NCBI RefSeq assembly: GCF_934309415.1
Contig: NZ_CAKRDI010000032.1
Coordinates: forward strand, 1-36,109
Reading direction: 5' to 3'
DNA from: an uncultured Mediterraneibacter sp.
GTDB taxonomy: Bacteria > Bacillota > Clostridia > Lachnospirales > Lachnospiraceae
DNA length: 36,109 bases
In this document: positions 13,543 through 35,543 of the stretch, one piece after another
Position numbering within the stretch: position 1 is the first letter of the stretch
Layout: each line of letters opens with the position of its first letter
The notes under the pieces: model-generated
Database searches by the model: none
Told to the model about the DNA's origin: nothing
What the model saw: the letters and a program-made list of their open reading frames with translations, nothing else
Made by a program: the position numbers and the translations under genes

Positions 13543-14643
13543 TTATATTTTATTGATTTCTTCCAGTAATTCTTCTAATGTCTTTTGGGTGTAAACTCCC
13601 TTGGTAATATTCTCATTGGATCCTGTTTTAAAGTTCTTTCCATCTTTGTCTTGAATAGAATGTCCCATGATGATTTTTTGACATACCTCATTCATTCCGG
13701 CATTATCCGCAATGGCGGCAAAGGTGTATCTGCAATCGTGTGGAGTATGCTTCATTCCTAATTTCTTCATCACTGTATCGAAATTCCCATTCGCATATGT
13801 TCCGTATGTGAAGTGGTTCCCAAACTTATTGTTAATCAAATATTTCCTGTCTGGATTATATCTGTTGCGTACCAGTGGAACAATTTTATCGTGAAGCGGT
13901 ATAATACGGTCATATCCGGCTTCTGTCTTCATGCCACCAACCATATATAGCTTATCAAGAAAAACGTTCTCTGTGGCTATGTTAAGAAGCTCAGAGGGGC
14001 GCAAGCCTGTGTAGATCATTATCAGAACGATATCAACATTGTTTATCTCATATAATTTATCCCACAGCTTTTGAATTTCTTCATCTGAGAATCTGGAATG
14101 GATTGATTGAGTTTGCTGTGTGTATTCATAGATGAGAAATGGAGTCGGATTTTCTTCAACGATTCCTTCCATCGTAGCGTAAGTATATACAGATTTCAGA
14201 ACCGCTCTCATGGATCCGATGGTTGTCTTGCTTTTCGTATTCCATTTATTTAAGCATTCTTGTATTTCCGATGCTTTAATATCGACTACTTTCCGATGAT
14301 GAATATCCTCTAAATGTGAAAAGGCGATTTCATAGTTTTTCCATGTGGTATCAGCCAGTTTGGTTTTCAGTCCTTTCCGGTATTCTTTCCATTTGTCGTA
14401 TAATTGTGCGAATGTGAGAGAATCAACCATGTTCTTATGCTCTTTTACTGGACTGCCTGCATTATATTCAGCAAGACATTTCAATGCTGCGTCCCTTTTC
14501 TCAAAATATCCGATATATTTGAACTTCTGTTTTACTTCTTTATTTTCCTTGTCAACTTCAAAATAAGATATTCTTACAGCGAATTTTTTTCTCCTATTTC
14601 CTCCTAATTTTACGACCGAGCCATATCCATTTGGTAATTTCAT
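13543..14643 (-). CDS. int: Phage tyrosine integrase
   Basis: Site-specific recombinase that inserts and excises the prophage. The N-terminus (GYGSVVKLGGNRRKKFAVRI) is of the arm-binding, AP2-like type; a SAM-like core-binding domain spans about residues 75-165. The catalytic domain shows TGLRPSELL (R215), HDCRYTF (H302, R305), a GHS motif and the nucleophile in GVYTQ (Y351). At 366 aa it is a complete member of the family. GGAGG lies 8-9 nt before the start on the minus strand. It is convergent with gdhA, consistent with integration downstream of gdhA. Confidence 0.95.
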   Translation of the reverse strand: MKLPNGYGSVVKLGGNRRKKFAVRISYFEVDKENKEVKQKFKYIGYFEKRDAALKCLAEYNAGSPVKEHKNMVDSLTFAQLYDKWKEYRKGLKTKLADTTWKNYEIAFSHLEDIHHRKVVDIKASEIQECLNKWNTKSKTTIGSMRAVLKSVYTYATMEGIVEENPTPFLIYEYTQQTQSIHSRFSDEEIQKLWDKLYEINNVDIVLIMIYTGLRPSELLNIATENVFLDKLYMVGGMKTEAGYDRIIPLHDKIVPLVRNRYNPDRKYLINNKFGNHFTYGTYANGNFDTVMKKLGMKHTPHDCRYTFAAIADNAGMNEVCQKIIMGHSIQDKDGKNFKTGSNENITKGVYTQKTLEELLEEINKI

Positions 14644-16586: not shown

Positions 16587-16961
16587 TCATTCTTCACCTT
16601 CCTCCAATTTGCGGAGCTCTGCAAGCTTTTTCGCGAATTCTACGAGCCTTTCTTTGTCTACTGTTTTGTACACGTCAAAGAGAATCTTGTCATTGTTATA
16701 GATTTCTTGAGCTGTTTTAGCTGCCTCTTCATCAATGTAGTATCCATGATTTGTGATTTCTGTCTTTGTGTCACCACCGTTCATTAAATAATCAATGGAA
16801 ACATTGAAATAATTTGCTACTATTTCTGCTAAATCCATTCCGCATTTTGAATTCTTCTTTTTCCATGTACTTATTGTTGATTGCGATACTCCTGTTTCTT
16901 TGCAAAACTTATAAGCACTTATTCCGTGGGATTGTAATAATTGCTCAAAAATTTCGTACAT
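16587..16961 (-). CDS. XRE-family phage repressor
   Basis: 124-aa DNA-binding protein. A classic helix-turn-helix lies at about residues 8-60 (GISAYKFCKETGVSQSTIS, then WKKK), with the conserved NYFNVSIDYLMNG at its end. The C-terminal half is helical and acidic, without the S24 LexA-type peptidase. The start is the ATG at 16961 preceded by AAAGGTGG; an extension to 17024 has no ribosome site and would overlap the operators. It divides the leftward lysogeny genes from the rightward operon and is the obvious candidate to bind the AACCGAAGTA sites upstream. Confidence 0.88.
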   Translation of the reverse strand: MYEIFEQLLQSHGISAYKFCKETGVSQSTISTWKKKNSKCGMDLAEIVANYFNVSIDYLMNGGDTKTEITNHGYYIDEEAAKTAQEIYNNDKILFDVYKTVDKERLVEFAKKLAELRKLEEGEE

Positions 16962-26808: not shown

Positions 26809-28629
26809 ATGTACTATCAGTTCAAGTCGGAAGATGCATATGAATTTGCTAGATTTATCGGGGCGAGGACAAGGCAGCATGGGGATGAGTTGAAATTTAA
26901 AATTTGTCCGTACTGCAAGGGGAGAACTGAAAAAGGAAAGCTGGATGGAGACACATTCTCTATAAATCTTGGGACAGGGCAATTCAAGTGTTTGAGATCA
27001 AGCTGCGGTGTTACTGGAAATATGATTACTCTTGCAAGGGATTTTGATTTCAGTCTTGGTGAACAGGTGATGGAATATTACAGACCGAAAAAGCAGTACA
27101 GAAGATTAAAAACACCGGACAAGCCAATTGTTCCGAAAGAACCAGCTATCGCTTATCTGGAAAGCAGAAAAATATCTGCTGAGGTTGCGCGCAAGTATGA
27201 AATTACCACTCAGAAAGATCATGACAATATTCTTGTATTTCCGTTTTATGACGGTGATGGAAAGCTGCAATATGTGAAATACCGTAAGACAGATTTTAAC
27301 AAAGAGGTCGATAAGAATAAGGAGTGGTGCGAAGCTGAATGTAAGCCGATTCTATTTGGAATGAAGCAATGCAAGGAGTTCACAAGGCTTGTGATTACGG
27401 AGGGGCAGTTAGACAGCCTTTCCGTAGCAACAGCCGGAATAGAGAATGCCGTAAGCGTCCCGAACGGAGCAAAAGGGTTTACCTGGCTTCCATATTGCTT
27501 TGACTGGGTAAGCAAATTCCAAGAGATTGTGGTGTTCGGGGATTTTGAAAAAGGACATATGACATTGCTTCCGGAATTGAAAAGCAGATTTCCAAACAAG
27601 ATTAAGCACGTTCGTGAAGAGGACTACAAAGGTTGTAAAGACGCAAATGAGCTGTTAATGAAATACGGGCGTGAAGATGTTCGACTGGCAGTAGAAAATG
27701 CCGAATTTGAGCCGATTAGACATATCAGAGAGCTTGCTGATGTGGAGAACGTTGACATATACAGCTTAAAAAAGCTAGATTCTACAATCAACCAGTGCAA
27801 TCGGTTACTGTATGGCGGCCTTCCGTTTGGCGGAGTGGTCATTATTATGGGAAAGCCAGGCGAAGGAAAATCAACCTTTGCGAGTCAGATAATGGGTAAA
27901 GCAATTGAAGATGGTCACAGAGTATTTGCTTATTCCGGTGAGCTGCCAAACTATTTGTTTAAGGCATGGCTTGATTTTCAGATTGCTGGTCCGCAGCACA
28001 TCATTGAGACAACGAATAAGTTTGGAGATGTTTCAAGAAAGATTTCCAACCAAAATCAAAGTATGATCAATGCCTGGTATCGTGGAAAAGCGCTTATTTA
28101 CGACAGCACAATTATTGAGGAAGATGAAAAAGAGGATATCTGCAAAACAATTCAAGAAGTTATTATCAGATATGGAGTGGACGTGATTTTGATCGACAAC
28201 CTAATGACAGCAGTTGATCTGGATGCAGAAAAAGGATCTGACAAGTATGAGAAGCAAAGTCTTTTTATGAAAAAGCTTACAAGGATGGCTCTGCAATTCG
28301 ATGTTCTGATTTTGCTGGTAGCTCACAAGAGAAAAAACAATTTTTCTGCAAATGAGACGGATGAAATCAGCGGCGCAGGCGATATTTCGAATCTGGCTTC
28401 ACTTGTGATCGGATACAGCAAGGATAAAGAGTTGAGCAATACATATAGGCGCATCACGGTTCCGAAGAACAGATTGTTTGGAAGAATCGATACAGAAGGA
28501 TTCTTGGCGATGTATGACGAACGATCCAAACGAATTTACGGAGACAATGATAATTTGAGCGTAGAATACGGCTGGTCCGGTCAAGATGGATTCGGGCAAG
28601 TAGATCAACTTCAAATTCCGTTTGAGTAG
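26809..28629 (+). CDS. TOPRIM primase / DnaB-like helicase
   Basis: 606 aa in the T7 gp4-like order. Zinc-binding N-terminus (CPYC at 33-36, then CLRSSC around 64-69); TOPRIM domain with VITEGQLDS (E198, D202); RecA-like helicase core with Walker A GKPGEGKST (348-356) and Walker B VDVILIDNL. It unwinds and possibly primes phage DNA. The start is adjacent to the initiator stop. No separate primase gene is in the window, so a bifunctional role is plausible. Confidence 0.9.
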   Translation: MYYQFKSEDAYEFARFIGARTRQHGDELKFKICPYCKGRTEKGKLDGDTFSINLGTGQFKCLRSSCGVTGNMITLARDFDFSLGEQVMEYYRPKKQYRRLKTPDKPIVPKEPAIAYLESRKISAEVARKYEITTQKDHDNILVFPFYDGDGKLQYVKYRKTDFNKEVDKNKEWCEAECKPILFGMKQCKEFTRLVITEGQLDSLSVATAGIENAVSVPNGAKGFTWLPYCFDWVSKFQEIVVFGDFEKGHMTLLPELKSRFPNKIKHVREEDYKGCKDANELLMKYGREDVRLAVENAEFEPIRHIRELADVENVDIYSLKKLDSTINQCNRLLYGGLPFGGVVIIMGKPGEGKSTFASQIMGKAIEDGHRVFAYSGELPNYLFKAWLDFQIAGPQHIIETTNKFGDVSRKISNQNQSMINAWYRGKALIYDSTIIEEDEKEDICKTIQEVIIRYGVDVILIDNLMTAVDLDAEKGSDKYEKQSLFMKKLTRMALQFDVLILLVAHKRKNNFSANETDEISGAGDISNLASLVIGYSKDKELSNTYRRITVPKNRLFGRIDTEGFLAMYDERSKRIYGDNDNLSVEYGWSGQDGFGQVDQLQIPFE

Positions 28630-28637
28630 GTGAAAAC

Positions 28638-28883
28638 ATGACGGAACAAGAAAGAAAAGTATATTACAAAGTAATTACGCAGAACTGGCTTGCATTTAAC
28701 GAATTTCTGAAGCATGGAGATTTTTCGGAGGAAGTCTTAGTGGAATATTGTGGATCAGATGGAGTGATTGAGAAAATCTTCCAGAGCAATGGAAAAACGA
28801 ATTTTGCAAAAGATGTAAGCATGGCAATGATTAATGAAATAGAGAGGTTATGTAATGAAAAAAGAAATCTTAAACAAAGCTAA
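28638..28883 (+). CDS. Small hypothetical phage protein
   Basis: 81 aa, soluble, mixed charge, no motif recognised. A GTAGGTG site precedes the ATG. Its 3' end overlaps the first DGR target gene by 29 nt, so the two are read from the same mRNA in different frames and are likely translationally coupled. Its role with either the helicase or the DGR is unknown. Confidence 0.6.
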   Translation: MTEQERKVYYKVITQNWLAFNEFLKHGDFSEEVLVEYCGSDGVIEKIFQSNGKTNFAKDVSMAMINEIERLCNEKRNLKQS

Positions 28884-29463
28884 GGAACTTGTAGAAATGT
28901 TAATTGAAGAAGAGAAGAAACAGAGCGTGCAGCTGTCAGAAATTCCTGCTGGAGGAAAATTCGATACTGGAATCGGTAGATTTATTGTGCTGGAACAGAA
29001 AGAGGATTCAACTGTTGTTATCACAGAAGATTTATATCGCAAGGAAGTGAAATATGATGGCGATACTTGCGAATACTTTGGGTCTGATCTGTCGAATCTT
29101 TTTGAAAAGGAAATTTATCCAGAATTCAAAGAAGAATTCGGAGCTGAAAACCTGTGTGATGCAGCAGCAAGTTTAGTGACGGTAGATATGCAAAATAAAA
29201 ATGAAGTGCTTCACGCAAGAGTTAGACCGCTGACGTTTGACGAAGCGCGTAAATACAATGAATTGCTGGTCAATAAGGATTTGGATGATTGGTATTGGAC
29301 ATGCACTGCTTGGAGTACTGAGGAAAGAGGCTGGAAGTATTCGGTAGCGGTTGTTTCTCCGTCCGGTGACTTCAACCGCTATGACTACGACGTCGGTAAC
29401 GGGGTTCGCCCACTTTGTATCTTAAAATCTAATATCTTTGTATCTTGTGTAGAGGAGAACTAA
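28855..29463 (+). CDS. DGR target protein 1 (DUF6273-like, variable C-terminus)
   Basis: 202 aa. A charged N-terminal helix (residues 1-25) is followed by a DUF6273-like C-type-lectin-type domain: GRFIVLEQ, SDLSNLF, LTFDEARKY, WYWTCTAW and the GVRPLCIL end. The variable repeat VR1 encodes about residues 165-189; the residues that differ from the template product are D172, F173, R175, Y176, D177, D179, V180 and G181. No signal peptide or membrane span is visible, so the protein seems cytosolic or virion-associated. The start ATG follows GAGAGG. It is 1 nt before target gene 2 in a tight operon. The ligand is unknown. Confidence 0.85.
   Translation: MKKEILNKAKELVEMLIEEEKKQSVQLSEIPAGGKFDTGIGRFIVLEQKEDSTVVITEDLYRKEVKYDGDTCEYFGSDLSNLFEKEIYPEFKEEFGAENLCDAAASLVTVDMQNKNEVLHARVRPLTFDEARKYNELLVNKDLDDWYWTCTAWSTEERGWKYSVAVVSPSGDFNRYDYDVGNGVRPLCILKSNIFVSCVEEN
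29346..29420 (+). repeat. DGR variable repeat VR1
   Basis: Aligns without gaps to the template at 30461-30535. From 30461 to 30527 there are ten differences, all at template adenines: A to G at 30483, 30493, 30498, 30504, 30507, 30510; A to T at 30486, 30495, 30508; A to C at 30492. No C, G or T of the template is changed in this stretch. Non-adenine differences occur only at the 3' edge (30528, 30530). Confidence 0.95.
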
Positions 29464-29464
29464 T

Positions 29465-30064
29465 ATGATGACATTAAAAGAATTCGGAGAAAATCTTGAA
29501 AAATTAAATTTAGCTTATGAAGAGCTGAAAAAGAAATACGGAAAACCGGAAGTAGGAAAGACGATTGAGGTTGCCGGGCTTACATGGAGAGTCTTGGACA
29601 AGCTTGAAAATGGATATCTTGTGATTTCAGATGGATTTTACAGGGATAGCAGAGAATTCGATGATAGTTCAAATAATTGGGATTCCAGTGATCTCAGAAA
29701 TGAATTAAACACGGATCTTCGCAAGAAGATTGAGGATAGCGTAGGTGAAGGCGCGCTTCTTAAATTCACACGCGATTTACTTTCTATGGATGGACAGACG
29801 GAATATGGCACATGCGAAGACTATGTATCACTCCTCACGGTTGATGAATATAGAAAATACAGAAAGTATCTGCCGAATATGCAGGAATGGTGGTGGCTGA
29901 TCACACCGAGTACTACACCTTGTAATAACAATAATCGTTTGGTTCAGGTTGTTTCTCCGTCCGGTTGCATCAACTGCAATTACTGCCACTACAGTATCGG
30001 GGTTCGCCCAGTTTGTATCTTCTCCTCTTCAATCTTTGAATCTTGTAAGGAAGACGACGAATAA
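29465..30064 (+). CDS. DGR target protein 2 (DUF6273-like, variable C-terminus)
   Basis: 199 aa, diverged paralogue of target 1. A helical N-terminus is followed by DUF6273 features: GKTIEVAGLTWRVLDKL, NNWDSSDLRNELN, SLLTVDEYRKY, EWWWLITPS and GVRPVCIF. VR2 encodes about residues 162-185; the diversified positions are C168, C171, Y173, C174, H175, Y176 and I178. No signal peptide or membrane segment. GAGGAG lies 7 nt before the first of two adjacent ATG codons (29465, 29468). It overlaps the Avd gene by one base. The upstream domains of targets 1 and 2 are far less alike than their VRs, which is the expected result of shared template-driven homing. Confidence 0.87.
   Translation: MMTLKEFGENLEKLNLAYEELKKKYGKPEVGKTIEVAGLTWRVLDKLENGYLVISDGFYRDSREFDDSSNNWDSSDLRNELNTDLRKKIEDSVGEGALLKFTRDLLSMDGQTEYGTCEDYVSLLTVDEYRKYRKYLPNMQEWWWLITPSTTPCNNNNRLVQVVSPSGCINCNYCHYSIGVRPVCIFSSSIFESCKEDDE
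29947..30018 (+). repeat. DGR variable repeat VR2
   Basis: Aligns to the template at 30464-30535 without gaps. Nine differences up to 30527, all at template adenines: A to T at 30483, 30492, 30498, 30507, 30514; A to G at 30484, 30493, 30502; A to C at 30504. Outside adenines the block is identical until the 3' edge (30528, 30530). Confidence 0.95.
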
Positions 30065-30435
30065 TGGGTGAAAACGACCTGAAAGTAATTCAAAAAGCAA
30101 AAGCTCTGGTTACTCATACGTTGAAAGTAACCAGTAATGCCAACCGCTATCCGAAGAAATTTAGATTTTCACTCGTTGATAAGATGCAAAATAAGTCAAT
30201 AGAAATTTTTGAAATGCTCTTTGAAGCGAATAGAACAGACATTAAGAATTACAAAAGAGATCGGCTTGAATTACAGACGAAAGCTATTACATATTGCGAT
30301 GAGTTGCTTGTCTACATAGAAATATCGCACGAACTCGGAATTATCAATATAGGCAGTGTAGAACATTGGTCTAAAATGGTTTCCGATGTAAAGCACATGG
30401 CGATTGCATGGAGAACAAAAGACAGGCAAAGATAA
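30064..30435 (+). CDS. avd: DGR accessory variability determinant (Avd-like)
   Basis: 123 aa, basic and all-helical: KALVTHTLKVTSNANRYPKK, SLVDKMQNKSIEIFEMLFEAN and a final WSKMVSDVKHMAIAWRTKDR. This is the profile of the four-helix-bundle Avd proteins that form a barrel-like pentamer and bind the DGR reverse transcriptase and template RNA. It lies between the second target and the template repeat, the usual position. The start overlaps the target-2 stop by one base. The template begins 25 nt after its stop. Confidence 0.87.
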   Translation: MGENDLKVIQKAKALVTHTLKVTSNANRYPKKFRFSLVDKMQNKSIEIFEMLFEANRTDIKNYKRDRLELQTKAITYCDELLVYIEISHELGIINIGSVEHWSKMVSDVKHMAIAWRTKDRQR

Positions 30436-30460
30436 ATACATTTTAGGTTTGTTTCCGTTA

Positions 30461-30535
30461 AGCGGTTGTTTCTCCGTCCGGTAACATCAACAACAATAAC
30501 TACAACAACAGTAACGGGGTTCGCCCATTCTGTAT
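30461..30535 (+). repeat. DGR template repeat (TR)
   Basis: Non-coding copy of the VR sequence between avd and the RT gene. Read in the VR frame it is packed with AAC/AAT codons between GGT (30480-30482) and GGG (30516-30518). There are 19 adenines in 30481-30515; 10 are changed in VR1 and 9 in VR2. AAC codons allow wide amino-acid choice without making stop codons. The 3' part carries the invariant GGGGTTCGCCC, the likely homing initiation end, followed by TR-specific mismatches. Confidence 0.95.
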
Positions 30536-30631
30536 TACAGACAGTCAGAGTAGGCATGAAGCCGAAATCAGAAAGAAAGATACAAAAAGGAAACAGACCT
30601 TCCTCTTAGAGGTAAATACAAAGGAATGCCA

Positions 30632-31657
30632 ATGGATAAGGATATTATTACAGATTACAGCAATCTGTATCAAGCTTATAAGAAAGCAAAATCAGGTAAG
30701 AAGTTTAATAGCAGCACTGCAAAATTTTCTTCAATGGCTTTAGAAGGCATTTGGATACTGAAAGAACAGCTAGAGAATCAGACATATGCAGTAGCTCCAT
30801 ACAATAAATTTGAGATCTATGAGCCAAAGAGAAGAAAAATTGAATCGTGTTCATTCAAAGATAAGGTAGTGCAGCATGTACTCTGTGATAATATCCTGCA
30901 TCCCAAATTAAAGAATGTGTTTATCGAATATAATTCTGCCGGTCAGGAAGGTAAAGGCACTTTGTATGCGCTGGATGGACTGAAAATTCATATGGAGTCG
31001 TTCCACCAAAAGCATGGTGCGGATGGTTGGATATTGAAATGCGATATCAGACATTTCTTTTACGAAATTGATCATGAAATACTGAAAGACATTGTAGATT
31101 ATTTCTTTCCGGATTCTTACACAACATGGCTGAATCATACACTAATTGACAGTAGTGAGAATCCTGGCTTACCACTTGGTAATCAGGCTGGACAGGTATA
31201 TGCATTGCTTACGGTCCATCCGGTAGACTGCATGGTGACTGGGGAACTTGGAATTGAAGAATACGGTCGATATATGGATGATTTTTATCTGATACACCGG
31301 AGTAAGGAATATTTGGAATGGTGCCTTGAATGTATAAGAGAGCTTCTGAAAAGTCTTGGATTGGAATTGAATGGAAAGACGCAGATCATCCCGTTTAAGA
31401 ATGGAATTCGCTTTCTTGGCTTTCATCACTATGTAACGCACGATGGAAAATATATTCGGAAGTTGACAGGCGAGAATAAACGGAAGAATAAGAAGAAATT
31501 CCGAAAATTGGTTAAAGATGTGAAAGATGGAAAACTTTCAGAGGAGAAATTTTACAAGAAATACAATTCATGGAGAAACCATGCTTTGCATGGAAATTGT
31601 GTGAAGTTGGTTCATAGCATGGATTTGTATATAGAAGGGTTGATGAATGGAAAATGA
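30632..31657 (+). CDS. DGR reverse transcriptase
   Basis: 341 aa from the ATG at 30632, 7 nt after AAAGG; the ATG at 30626 is too close to that site. Group-II-intron-like RT fold: first catalytic Asp in KCDIRHFF (D138), GLPLGNQAGQ (179-188), the YMDD box at 214-217, and the later GIRFLGFHHY. The size is typical of DGR RTs, with no maturase or endonuclease domain. DGR RTs copy TR RNA with errors at adenines. The usual SQ in the G-x-x-x-SQ motif is GQ here, a variant. It overlaps the next gene (ATGA). Confidence 0.93.
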   Translation: MDKDIITDYSNLYQAYKKAKSGKKFNSSTAKFSSMALEGIWILKEQLENQTYAVAPYNKFEIYEPKRRKIESCSFKDKVVQHVLCDNILHPKLKNVFIEYNSAGQEGKGTLYALDGLKIHMESFHQKHGADGWILKCDIRHFFYEIDHEILKDIVDYFFPDSYTTWLNHTLIDSSENPGLPLGNQAGQVYALLTVHPVDCMVTGELGIEEYGRYMDDFYLIHRSKEYLEWCLECIRELLKSLGLELNGKTQIIPFKNGIRFLGFHHYVTHDGKYIRKLTGENKRKNKKKFRKLVKDVKDGKLSEEKFYKKYNSWRNHALHGNCVKLVHSMDLYIEGLMNGK

Positions 31658-32768: not shown

Positions 32769-33791
32769 ATGTATATACAAGAAGATGACTTGAAACTAAA
32801 TGACTGGCAGTTCTCGCAAAGAAAATATCTGCCATATGAAACAAAGCTACGGCTTACAGAAACCCGTATAAGAGAATGGCATTACAACTGGGATGGGCAA
32901 GTGTATTTAAGCTATTCTGCTGGACTTGATAGCACGGTGTTACTACATATGATCCGAAAAATATTAGGAAATGATGTCCCGGCTGTCTTTTCTAACACAG
33001 GTTTGGAATTTCCAGAAATCGTGAGATTTGCAAGGAAAGCACCGGGTGAATTTGAAGAGATATATCCGAGAGAAAAAGATGGAAAGAGGATTACATTTAA
33101 ACAGGTCGTTGACCAATACGGATTCCCGCTTGTGTCGAAAGAAACGGCATTGAAAATACATAAGTTGCGACACGGGAACTTATCAGATCGGTATAGAAAC
33201 TATCTGCTGAACGGGGACGAGCGTGGAAAGTTCGGAGTTTTGGCAAAAAAATGGAAGTTTCTGTTGGACGCAAAATTTGATACATCTGAGAAGTGCTGTC
33301 ACATTATGAAGAAGAAACCATTTAAAGAATACGAAAAGCGCACCGGCAGAAAACCATATATCGGCACAACACAGGATGAGGGATTCATGCGAGCGCATCT
33401 ATACGCAAGCACAGGCTGTAATGTGTATGACGGGAAGAAAATTAAATCACAGCCGTTAGGATTTTGGAACAGACAGGATGTATTAAGATACGTGGTCGAA
33501 AATGATGTGGAAATATGCTCTGTGTACGGAGATATTAAGCAAGATCAGCAGGGTAACTATTATACAACAGGAGAACAACGAACAGGATGTATGTTCTGTG
33601 GATTCGGAGCGCACCTGGAAGAAGAACCAAACAGATTCCAGAGAATGTCGGTAACGCATCCGAAACATTATGGAATTTGTATGAATCTTGAGAACAACGG
33701 TGTGAAGTATAAGAATGCACTGGGAATGTGCGGGATTTGTACGGAAACATGGAAGCAACAAGGACAGATGGACATATTTGATTTTATTTAA
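32769..33791 (+). CDS. PAPS-reductase-family (PP-loop) phage protein
   Basis: 340 aa. The ATP-pyrophosphatase loop SYSAGLDSTVLLHM (about residue 55) and FSNTGLEFPEI define the PAPS-reductase/DndC-like superfamily. Later cysteines (EKCCHIMK, TGCMFCGFG, GMCGICTE) may hold a cluster or metal. Phage members are widespread and unassigned; ideas include sulfur-based nucleic-acid modification. The ATG at 32769 is the only start in frame after the preceding stop. A second PP-loop protein follows at 33956. Confidence 0.85.
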   Translation: MYIQEDDLKLNDWQFSQRKYLPYETKLRLTETRIREWHYNWDGQVYLSYSAGLDSTVLLHMIRKILGNDVPAVFSNTGLEFPEIVRFARKAPGEFEEIYPREKDGKRITFKQVVDQYGFPLVSKETALKIHKLRHGNLSDRYRNYLLNGDERGKFGVLAKKWKFLLDAKFDTSEKCCHIMKKKPFKEYEKRTGRKPYIGTTQDEGFMRAHLYASTGCNVYDGKKIKSQPLGFWNRQDVLRYVVENDVEICSVYGDIKQDQQGNYYTTGEQRTGCMFCGFGAHLEEEPNRFQRMSVTHPKHYGICMNLENNGVKYKNALGMCGICTETWKQQGQMDIFDFI

Positions 33792-33955: not shown

Positions 33956-34666
33956 ATGAAAGTATGTTGGTTTTCAACAGGAATTAGCAGTTTTGTAGCT
34001 TGTTATTTAGCAAAGGATGTAGATGAGATAATTTATACTCATGTACCAGATCAGCATCCTGATTCTTTGAGATTTTTGCATGATTGCGAAAGGATATTGG
34101 GTAGAAAAATTACAATCTTACAATCTGATAGGTTTTCGTCAGTAGAGGATGTAATGAATTTTTCTCACACAATGAATACTCCTTTTGGTGCTCCATGCAC
34201 AAGGTATCTCAAAAAAGAAGTTAGGAAAAAATGGGAAAGAGAGAATCCTGACCACCACACTTATGTATGGGGATTTGATGTAAACGAAACAACGAGAGCT
34301 GAAAATACTTGCAAGGCATTAAGTGACTACGATCATGAGTTTCCGCTCATTGAAAACGGACTCACGAAAGAGGAAGCTCACGGTATCGCAAGAAAGCTCG
34401 GACTCAAAAGACCTATCATGTATGACATGGGTTATCCGAATAATAACTGTATCGGCTGTGTGAAAGGTGGCATGGGTTACTGGAATAAAATTCGAGTAGA
34501 TTTCCCGGAGGTTTTTGCTAGAAGAGCAGAGCAAGAAAGACGGTTCAACAGGACTTGTATCAAAGGCGTATTCCTAGATGAATTAGAACCAAACAGAGGA
34601 AACATTAATACAGAAGTCATGGAAGATTGCACGATAGCGTGTCAGCTTCTGACTTGGAACAAATAA
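33956..34666 (+). CDS. Second PP-loop (PAPS-reductase-like) protein
   Basis: 236 aa. The N-terminal KVCWFSTGISSFVACYLA is a PP-loop variant (STGISS in place of SGGxDS), followed by IIYTHVPDQHPDS. C-terminal cysteines in NNNCIGCVKGGMGYWNK resemble the metal/cluster site of the family. Shorter than its neighbour at 32769 and probably a different subfamily, it may be part of the same nucleotide or tRNA/DNA modification pathway. The start has no good ribosome site and lies next to a hairpin. Base composition becomes more AT-rich from here on. Confidence 0.72.
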   Translation: MKVCWFSTGISSFVACYLAKDVDEIIYTHVPDQHPDSLRFLHDCERILGRKITILQSDRFSSVEDVMNFSHTMNTPFGAPCTRYLKKEVRKKWERENPDHHTYVWGFDVNETTRAENTCKALSDYDHEFPLIENGLTKEEAHGIARKLGLKRPIMYDMGYPNNNCIGCVKGGMGYWNKIRVDFPEVFARRAEQERRFNRTCIKGVFLDELEPNRGNINTEVMEDCTIACQLLTWNK

Positions 34667-34680
34667 TAGTACCTTGACAA

Positions 34681-34709
34681 TTGAATATTGATGGTTGGAA
34701 TGGTATAAT
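34681..34709 (+). promoter_or_regulatory. Independent promoter of the DUF2971 gene
   Basis: TTGAAT at 34681-34686 and TATAAT at 34704-34709 with a 17-nt spacer, immediately after the stop of the preceding gene. TTGACA at 34675-34680 is too far from the -10 (23 nt) to be the -35. Confidence 0.65.
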
Positions 34710-34739
34710 TTCCGTATAAATGTACGGGAGGAAATGCCA

Positions 34740-35543
34740 ATGAGTAAAGAATGGATGTCGGAATACATAGAGAAATTAGAGGATGAAAAAATTTCGTTTT
34801 TTGATGTAGTACAATTTGTGAAACAATATATGCCACGCAAATTGTACAGTTATAGAAGAATGAATGATTATTGGCGAGAAAATGTATTTAAAGGGTGTGT
34901 TCATTTAACGCCGGCTTCTGAATTTAATGATCCATTTGATTGTTTTCCTACTATTGATTTCATTAAAGACACTGGAACAATATCTAAAGCATACAGAGAA
35001 TATAGTAAAAGTACAAAACCAGAATATAGAGAGGCAAAAAAAGAGATAGATAAAGTTGTTCGTGAATTATTGGGAAAGAATCAACGTGATACGTTAGTGT
35101 CATGTTTTACGGAGAAAAAAGATTCTATTTTAATGTGGTCGTATTATACTGAAAATCATAAAGGGTTTTGCATAGAATACGATACGACAAAAGCAGAAAT
35201 TTTTCACCAGCAGGTATTACCTGTTATTTATGATGATAACCGATATAATGCTATGCGTTTACTAGAAACACAAAATAATAATATAATTTTGAATCCATAT
35301 GTGTATAAAGCAAAGTGCTGGAAACATGAAGAAGAGTGGAGAATTTTATCTACACATTGTGAAGAAATTCATCCAAACGATAACGTTTATTTAAAAGAAG
35401 CAATAACTGGTGTGTACTTGGGAGCAAAGATAGACAAGGATATAGAAGAAGAAATAAAAAATTGGGGAAAAACAGAAAAAATACCCATTTATAAAATGGA
35501 GTTAGATAATCAAAAGTATATACTTAATAGTAAACGATTGTAA
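34740..35543 (+). CDS. DUF2971 protein, moron-like cargo gene
   Basis: 267 aa. The DUF2971 pattern is clear: KLYSYRRMNDYWRENVFKG, TPASEFNDPFDCF, VSCFTEKKDSILMWSYYTEN, GFCIEYDT, VIYDDNRY and CWKHEEEWRIL. The biochemical function of DUF2971 is unknown; members turn up near phage-defence and cargo genes. The ATG at 34740 is 8 nt after GGGAGG; the ATG at 34734 is too close. It has its own promoter and strong terminator and is more AT-rich than its neighbours: the hallmarks of a moron expressed from the prophage. Confidence 0.85.
   Translation: MSKEWMSEYIEKLEDEKISFFDVVQFVKQYMPRKLYSYRRMNDYWRENVFKGCVHLTPASEFNDPFDCFPTIDFIKDTGTISKAYREYSKSTKPEYREAKKEIDKVVRELLGKNQRDTLVSCFTEKKDSILMWSYYTENHKGFCIEYDTTKAEIFHQQVLPVIYDDNRYNAMRLLETQNNNIILNPYVYKAKCWKHEEEWRILSTHCEEIHPNDNVYLKEAITGVYLGAKIDKDIEEEIKNWGKTEKIPIYKMELDNQKYILNSKRL

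What the first reader, a model, noticed from the sequence alone, without database searches (positions are those of the whole stretch)
28855..31657. Complete diversity-generating retroelement with two targets and one template
Seen: two tandem genes end in near-identical blocks (VR1 29346-29420, VR2 29947-30018) that match a non-coding block (TR 30461-30535) between an Avd-like gene and a YMDD reverse transcriptase. Over the aligned core, VR1 has 10 and VR2 has 9 differences from TR, and all 19 are at TR adenines; no template C, G or T changes before position 30528. Known: adenine-specific TR-to-VR mutagenesis is the DGR signature. Inference: the element is active or recently active, since both VRs are otherwise identical to TR while the target genes upstream have diverged.
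Basis: partly seen in the sequence, partly recalled or inferred. Interest (0 to 1): 0.95.

Follow-up and report, generated by a model that had tools for sequence, protein, structure and literature searches.

The report
Twin-target phage gene-diversifying retroelement
A likely prophage in this window carries a complete diversity-generating retroelement whose single template matches the ends of two neighbouring genes except at adenines; it would let the phage vary two proteins predicted to have a lectin-like fold, a known kind of system in an unusual genome position and with its own pattern of changes.

Summary
Confirmed. Window 28855-31657 holds a complete diversity-generating retroelement (DGR): two target genes, Avd, template repeat (TR), YMDD reverse transcriptase. 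VR1 differs from TR at 10 sites and VR2 at 9, all TR adenines. Relatives show a lineage: 47 loci (window included) carry two targets upstream of Avd. Within two phage groups the two targets form an old, order-keeping pair, yet each VR follows its own TR (0.3% mismatch at non-A sites, 30% to other elements' TRs). The closest relative's TR carries a silent T/G difference from the window's, and both its VRs carry it too, as copying into both targets predicts. Models give both targets a C-type-lectin-like (DUF6273) fold. A covarying 12-bp RNA helix encloses TR. Less ordinary: the cassette lies beside replication genes; in two relatives read at length it is 10-21 kb from the structural genes, so a virion role is open. 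And A-to-C is nearly absent where A precedes C (3 of 424 changes), the reverse of BPP-1's published rule; nd4/nd12 phages were already reported so. Selection on the proteins is not excluded as the cause. Live activity was not tested.

The parts
28855..29463 (+). Target gene 1 (distal target), 202 aa, VR1 at its 3' end
29346..29420 (+). VR1; core 29346-29412 matches TR 30461-30527 with 10 differences, all at A
29465..30064 (+). Target gene 2 (proximal target), 199 aa, VR2 at its 3' end
29947..30018 (+). VR2; core 29947-30010 matches TR 30464-30527 with 9 differences, all at A
30064..30435 (+). Avd gene, 123 aa
   Evidence: phrog_3206 'Avd protein of DGR' 2.6e-24; Pfam bAvd 28.1 bits, under cut-off 40; NCBIfam Avd 43.5 bits, under cut-off 80
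30445..30456 (+). 5' arm of the 12-bp RNA helix that encloses TR
30461..30535 (+). TR, the template repeat, between Avd and RT; 21 adenines in 30461-30527
30589..30600 (+). 3' arm of the 12-bp RNA helix
   Evidence: 97.7% of cells paired, 10 of 12 pairs with changes on both sides over 22 sequences
30602..30612 (+). Small covarying hairpin in the spacer before RT
   Evidence: helix 4: 3 pairs, 98.5% of cells paired
30626..31657 (+). Reverse transcriptase, 343 aa, YMDD at 31271-31282
   Evidence: RVT_1 3.2e-17; phrog_1423 9.7e-99; 8ub7_A 3.3e-32
26809..28629 (+). Context: phage primase/helicase two genes upstream of target 1
   Evidence: phrog_239 1.7e-84
13543..14643 (-). Context: likely integrase at the prophage edge (label recalled, not searched against a library)
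   Evidence: ORF; phmmer relatives in other loci

Best explanation
This is a diversity-generating retroelement in which the reverse transcriptase and Avd would copy the TR RNA with errors at adenines, and the copy is predicted to overwrite the ends of two tandem target genes, so that one template likely keeps varying two proteins. Shown by sequence: all parts; adenine-only differences; a silent TR difference shared by TR and both VRs in the closest relative; an old, order-keeping pair of targets; a covarying 12-bp helix around TR. Inferred: the folded TR RNA recruits RT and Avd, as published for BPP-1; transfer ends near the GTNCGNCC segment at the 3' end of VR; the lectin-like domain presents the VR-coded stretch for binding. 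Inferred and weaker: the place beside the replicative helicase couples copying to phage DNA replication after induction, giving mixed progeny. My guess for the targets is virion-borne receptor binding (about 0.55); a role in the infected cell is the main alternative.
For: Parts and A-only differences. 65 distinct VRs of 36 two-target elements differ from their own TR at 0.34% of non-A sites and from other elements' TRs at 29.7%. L070: GTG in TR and both VRs where the window has GTT. Target tree: in the window's group distal and proximal copies fall in separate starred clades (14-16 rows each), as in an 18-locus second group. Both targets modelled as C-type-lectin-like. Helix: 97.7% paired; whole structure 97.8%, slid controls 31-45%. 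TR/VR homology ends 8-14 nt after the start of GTNCGNCC in 66 of 66 distinct TR/VR 3' flanks.
Against: No read-level or experimental evidence of activity. Avd is under the Pfam and NCBIfam cut-offs. No stem-loop after either VR stands out in the window (z 0.45 and 0.27); in L070 one of two does (z -3.47; the other -1.33). Eight of 94 target slots gave no VR by the ungapped scan. 27 of 47 two-target loci show no homolog of the window's SSB, DnaD, DnaB or RecT in the DNA held, so the replication setting is shown for part of the lineage only.
Confidence: 0.93

Rival explanations
1. The shortage of A-to-C before C reflects selection on the target proteins (few Thr, Ala, Pro tolerated), not an error rule of this RT lineage.
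For: Codon position and base context are confounded: nearly all A-before-C sites are second positions of AAC or like codons. Every VR read here is from a gene under selection. G/T make-up varies more among VRs than chance (chi2 125.5, df 67). PMC10743442 section 2.6 leaves both readings open.
Against: The same codon differs by RT lineage: second A of AAC gives G/T/C 208/104/2 in clade A, 103/33/3 in B, 62/11/34 in C (A against B not significant, p 0.22). C occurs in 2 of 60 clade A elements and 17 of 23 clade C elements. In two-target VRs a first-position A before T never became C (0 of 23 changes), against 49 of 349 before A (I ran no test on this).
Confidence: 0.45
2. The two targets are not virion parts: they act in the infected cell or on the lysogen, for example in phage-host conflict.
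For: The cassette lies outside the structural module: RT to terminase about 21 kb in L070's record and about 10 kb in L077's. A second DGR target outside the structural module, near defence genes, is published for Quimbyvirus (PMC8008677, passages). No membrane-like segment in either window target.
Against: Viral DGR targets of several clades are mostly annotated as tail proteins (PMC8144416 section 9, read); phage virion proteins can be encoded apart from the tail genes.
Confidence: 0.4
3. A decayed DGR: the VRs were diversified in the past and the element no longer works in this strain.
For: No activity data. Faecalibacterium phage DGRs were discussed as possibly inactive in culture (PMC11792537, passages).
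Against: RT, Avd and both targets are open; YMDD intact; 0 non-A mismatches in either VR core.
Confidence: 0.15
4. Ordinary repeats or gene conversion between paralogs, without reverse transcription.
For: Tandem paralogs can exchange sequence.
Against: Changes are confined to template adenines in both VRs; the template is non-coding and beside an RT and Avd; the pattern recurs in relatives.
Confidence: 0.02

Closest known systems
Bordetella phage BPP-1 DGR (mtd, avd, TR, brt)
   Same: Avd, TR and RT in the same order; VR at the 3' end of a target with a lectin fold (fold of Mtd recalled); annotated parts seen in NC_005357; an avd-end/spacer RNA duplex is predicted there too (no control).
   Different: One target, inside the tail region; TR 134 nt; published error rule has G opposite A highest at A before C (26.8%) (PMC12875486 section 7).
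Phages nd4 and nd12, two-target DGRs
   Same: Two targets, one TR; their target 2 is a DUF6273-only protein with VR at the 3' end; rare A-to-C at the second A of AAC already noted (PMC10743442, abstract, passages and sections 2.6 and 3).
   Different: Target 1 is a tentaclin (lectin domain plus Ig domains, VR near the 5' end); nd12's RT lies among tail and lysis genes. RT 45.5% (nd12) and 39.2% (nd4) identical.
Lagaffe_CP, Lelie, CP11 and Roseburia phage Shimadzu two-VR DGRs
   Same: One TR, two targets; Lagaffe_CP has two homologous targets (PMC11792537, passages).
   Different: Lagaffe_CP targets are Mtd-like; genome position of these cassettes was not compared here.
Quimbyvirus DGR
   Same: A target outside the structural module (PMC8008677, passages).
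   Different: Only one of its two targets lies outside; RT split over three frames.
N-terminal domain of Thomasclavelia ramosa IgA peptidase (9qa6)
   Different: Part of a secreted peptidase and dispensable for its activity; a shared fold shows no shared function.

Membership tests
Diversity-generating retroelement | Reverse transcriptase of DGR type | tested here: met
   phrog_1423 9.7e-99, 8ub7_A 3.3e-32 (identity of 8ub7 recalled); PADLOC and NCBIfam hits are to other RT kinds, NCBIfam ones far under cut-off
Diversity-generating retroelement | Non-coding TR near the RT | tested here: met
   30461-30535 between Avd and RT; a 81-aa reverse-strand ORF also spans it and was not judged a gene
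Diversity-generating retroelement | VR in a target gene, differing from TR at adenines | tested here: met
   10 of 10 and 9 of 9 differences at A
Diversity-generating retroelement | Accessory Avd (usual) | tested here: met
   PHROG Avd 2.6e-24; under the Pfam and NCBIfam cut-offs
Diversity-generating retroelement | Boundary at the 3' end with VR and TR differing (IMH and IMH*) | tested here: met
   Both VRs differ from TR at 30528 and 30530; 66 of 66 flanks end 8-14 nt after the start of GTNCGNCC
Diversity-generating retroelement | Stem-loop after the VR, as in BPP-1 (important, not strictly required) | tested here: inconclusive
   z 0.45 and 0.27 in the window, -1.33 and -3.47 in L070
Diversity-generating retroelement | Mutagenic retrohoming takes place | not testable with these tools
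   No reads or experiment; TR difference shared by both VRs in L070 is indirect
C-type-lectin-like (DUF6273) target proteins | Lectin-like fold | tested here: met
C-type-lectin-like (DUF6273) target proteins | Pfam DUF6273 over its cut-off | tested here: inconclusive
   Target 2 25.5 bits over 23.5; target 1 no hit at 1e-3
Tentaclins | N-terminal lectin domain followed by Ig domains | tested here: not met
   Targets are 202 and 199 aa, one lectin-like domain after a short helix; VR at the C-terminus

The most novel reading that the evidence does not exclude
The RTs of this gut-phage lineage follow an error rule opposite to BPP-1's. They almost never put G opposite a template A that comes just after a correctly copied C; G appears mainly when the neighbouring A has just been miscopied (first A of AA to C in 12 of 245 changes when the second A is kept, 56 of 249 when it is changed). 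AAC codons thus reach Tyr, Asp, Ser, Gly, Phe, Ile, Arg, Cys and Leu but hardly Thr, Ala or Pro. Set in the replication module, the cassette diversifies an old pair of lectin-fold proteins in step with phage DNA synthesis.
Probability: 0.4. Interest if true: 0.72.

Novelty: new variant of a known kind. Interest (0 to 1): 0.5.

Why it matters
One template feeding two old paralogs is a natural setting to ask why phages diversify two binding proteins at once. A cassette beside replication genes, away from the structural genes, asks whether DGR targets must be virion parts. The lineage-specific pattern bears on the error profile that a 2026 study measured for BPP-1's RT at AAC motifs: it suggests that this profile differs between RT lineages, which can be tested by putting this RT into the laboratory E. 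coli system described there.

Tried and rejected
A hidden third target: none found in the window (up to 8 non-A mismatches), in L070's record (57,851 bases) or in 40,000 of 40,190 bases of L077's record (up to 6). L077's record has portal, head, tape-measure, tail-spike and endolysin genes; L070's record ends shortly after the tape-measure gene, and the window's own late genes lie beyond its end. So a third target is not excluded for the window's phage.

Lost targets: the distal targets of L075, L076, L079 and L080 gave no VR in the ungapped scan. Their sequences look like VRs with a shifted register; I did not re-align them with gaps. L001 distal and L013 proximal were not resolved; L074 gave no TR.

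Rfam: one weak RT-2 match in the window (19.3 bits, gathering 40); in six relatives only tRNAs reached gathering score. Defence RT: PADLOC hits are to general RT models; rejected because of TR, VRs and Avd. No solved Avd was found by sequence. Megablast of the prophage part of the window against phage records gave two short pieces (160 and 40 nt), both outside the cassette; the cassette alone gave none.

IgA binding: the best fold match is a domain of an IgA peptidase, but that domain is reported dispensable for cleavage, so I drew no function from it.

Papers: seven searches were answered. In the listings and the passages I opened I saw no report of two tandem DUF6273 targets in a replication module; most subscription papers are not held, among them the 2025 BPP-1 RNA structure paper, seen only in a reference list.
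Full report
Observation. Target 1 (28855-29463), target 2 (29465-30064), Avd (30064-30435), TR (30461-30535) and RT (30626-31657) lie in one direction. A repeat search with no adenine filter finds the three copies. VR1 shows 10 differences and VR2 9 over the core, all at template adenines; for random sites the chance is 1.4e-6 and 6.1e-6.

Relatives. RT searches gave 69 genome loci and 80 viral loci, the latter a capped list of 152. Of these 149 and the window, 124 have an Avd found by similarity, 76 of those have a target upstream, 47 (window included) have two. A VR was found in 86 of 94 target slots, with 963 differences at A and 28 elsewhere; without identical pairs and pairs over the filter, 65 remain with 736 and 23. 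The scan accepts only A-biased pairs, so the totals describe detected VRs. In a 60-nt register 65 VRs of 36 elements differ from their own TR at 0.34% of non-A sites (at most 5%) and from other elements' TRs at 29.7% (least 2.4%). L070 is the best single case: its TR has GTG where the window's has GTT, and both L070 VRs have GTG. The difference is silent (valine), so protein selection does not explain it; which state is older is unknown. The adenine-site patterns of the four VRs all differ. Copying from TR into both targets since the two phages split explains this directly.

The pair is old. In a tree of 100 distinct target proteins the distal and proximal copies of the group that includes the window fall in separate starred clades (14-16 rows), and so do those of an 18-locus Oscillospiraceae-type group. 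The deep joins between groups are weak, so one or more duplications cannot be told apart.

Place in the phage. The window has chromosomal genes up to about 13.4 kb, a likely integrase (13543-14643, minus), then genes that I label RecT-, SSB- and DnaD-like from recall, and a primase/helicase two genes upstream of target 1. In L070's record the terminase, portal, head and tape-measure genes start about 21 kb downstream of the RT. In L077's record the terminase lies about 10 kb downstream of the RT, followed by portal, head, tape-measure, tail-spike and endolysin genes. Homologs of the window's SSB, DnaD, DnaB or RecT are held in 20 of 47 two-target loci, 1 of 20 loci with a single target of at least 250 aa, 0 of 30 loci of RT clade B and 0 of 9 of clade C. 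The other 27 two-target loci show none; locus lengths differ, and unrelated replication genes would be missed. So the replication setting is shown for part of the lineage.

RNA. An alignment of 22 elements, chosen by me from clade A's 62, folds with a 12-bp helix between 30445-30456 and 30589-30600, so that TR lies inside a closed loop. For this helix 97.7% of cells pair and 10 of 12 pairs have changes on both sides; for the whole tested structure 97.8% pair, against 31-45% when partners are slid by 1-3 columns. Over all three clades own-partner duplexes are more stable than swapped ones by about 5 kcal/mol on average, with wide spread. BPP-1 gives an avd-end/spacer duplex too (no control), so this is probably a general DGR feature; the paper on the BPP-1 RNA structure was not available, so I claim no novelty for it.

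Error pattern. With further viral scans 280 loci had an RT, 222 of them a TR/VR pair, giving 124 distinct RTs. In the window's clade A (62 RTs) A-to-C makes up 3 of 424 changes at A before C, 1 of 146 before T and 73 of 527 before A. Clade B (32 RTs): 6/178, 24/68, 53/258. Clade C (24 RTs): 34/120, 26/56, 30/168. Six RTs lie outside these sets (2/27, 5/22, 13/50). Some counts before T outside clade A come from one repeated context (18 of 19 GAT changes are to C in the downstream-target group), so those rates are inflated. For AAC alone the second A gives G 208, T 104, C 2 in clade A, 103, 33, 3 in B and 62, 11, 34 in C (element-level p 3.5e-12 for A against C; 0.22 for A against B). In AA doublets the first A becomes C in 12 of 245 changes when the second A is kept and in 56 of 249 when it is changed in clade A (p 7e-9); 19/155 and 34/103 in B (p 7e-5); 12/82 and 17/85 in C (p 0.42). 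The share of G over T varies more among VRs than chance, and is weakly shared by the two VRs of an element (Spearman 0.38, p 0.03, 32 elements). BPP-1's measured rule is the reverse: G opposite A 26.8% before C, 2.4% before A (PMC12875486 section 7, read). BPP-1's own VR is too small to decide (1 C of 9 changes before C). Baykov and colleagues noted rare A-to-C at the second A of AAC in nd4- and nd12-like phages and left mutation and selection open (PMC10743442 section 2.6, read). I add the contrast between RT lineages and the doublet dependence. All VRs here are from genes under selection, so selection remains a real alternative.

Mechanism and verdict. The element is a DGR with one template and two targets. 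The likely course: TR RNA folds and recruits RT and Avd, is copied with adenine errors, and the copy replaces VR up to the GTNCGNCC boundary in either target. A published E. coli study finds editing favoured near the origin and in one orientation (PMC12875486, passages); a cassette beside the replicative helicase may exploit this, which is inference. The finding is real and mostly of a known kind; the layout and the error pattern make it a variant worth testing.

Noticed in passing
window 32769-33791 and 33956-34666: Two PAPS-reductase-like genes (both phrog_424) follow the cassette; relatives of one or both also lie near the cassettes of L070, L077, L078 and L081. Role unknown.
   Followed up: no
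window 34695-35543: A DUF2971 gene (37.4 bits, cut-off 22) lies further downstream.
   Followed up: no
L128 19173 and L140 19242: Clade B elements with a main target of about 580-607 aa after the RT have a second VR some 7 kb further on, in a small gene like window target 2 (198 and 203 aa).
   Followed up: no
L057 17933-18631, minus strand: A second TR/VR-like pair with an RT-like ORF at 16615 (minus) lies about 8 kb from the first element in one Collinsella contig, which suggests two DGRs in one stretch.
   Followed up: no
L075 123, L079 3408, L080 8699: Distal VRs that fall out of register with TR part of the way, as if a codon-sized piece of the AAC run were missing; not aligned with gaps.
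   Followed up: partly
L048 8347-9377, L126 8803-9825: The RT reading frame is broken into two ORFs beside a TR/VR pair that still looks DGR-like; described only.
   Followed up: no
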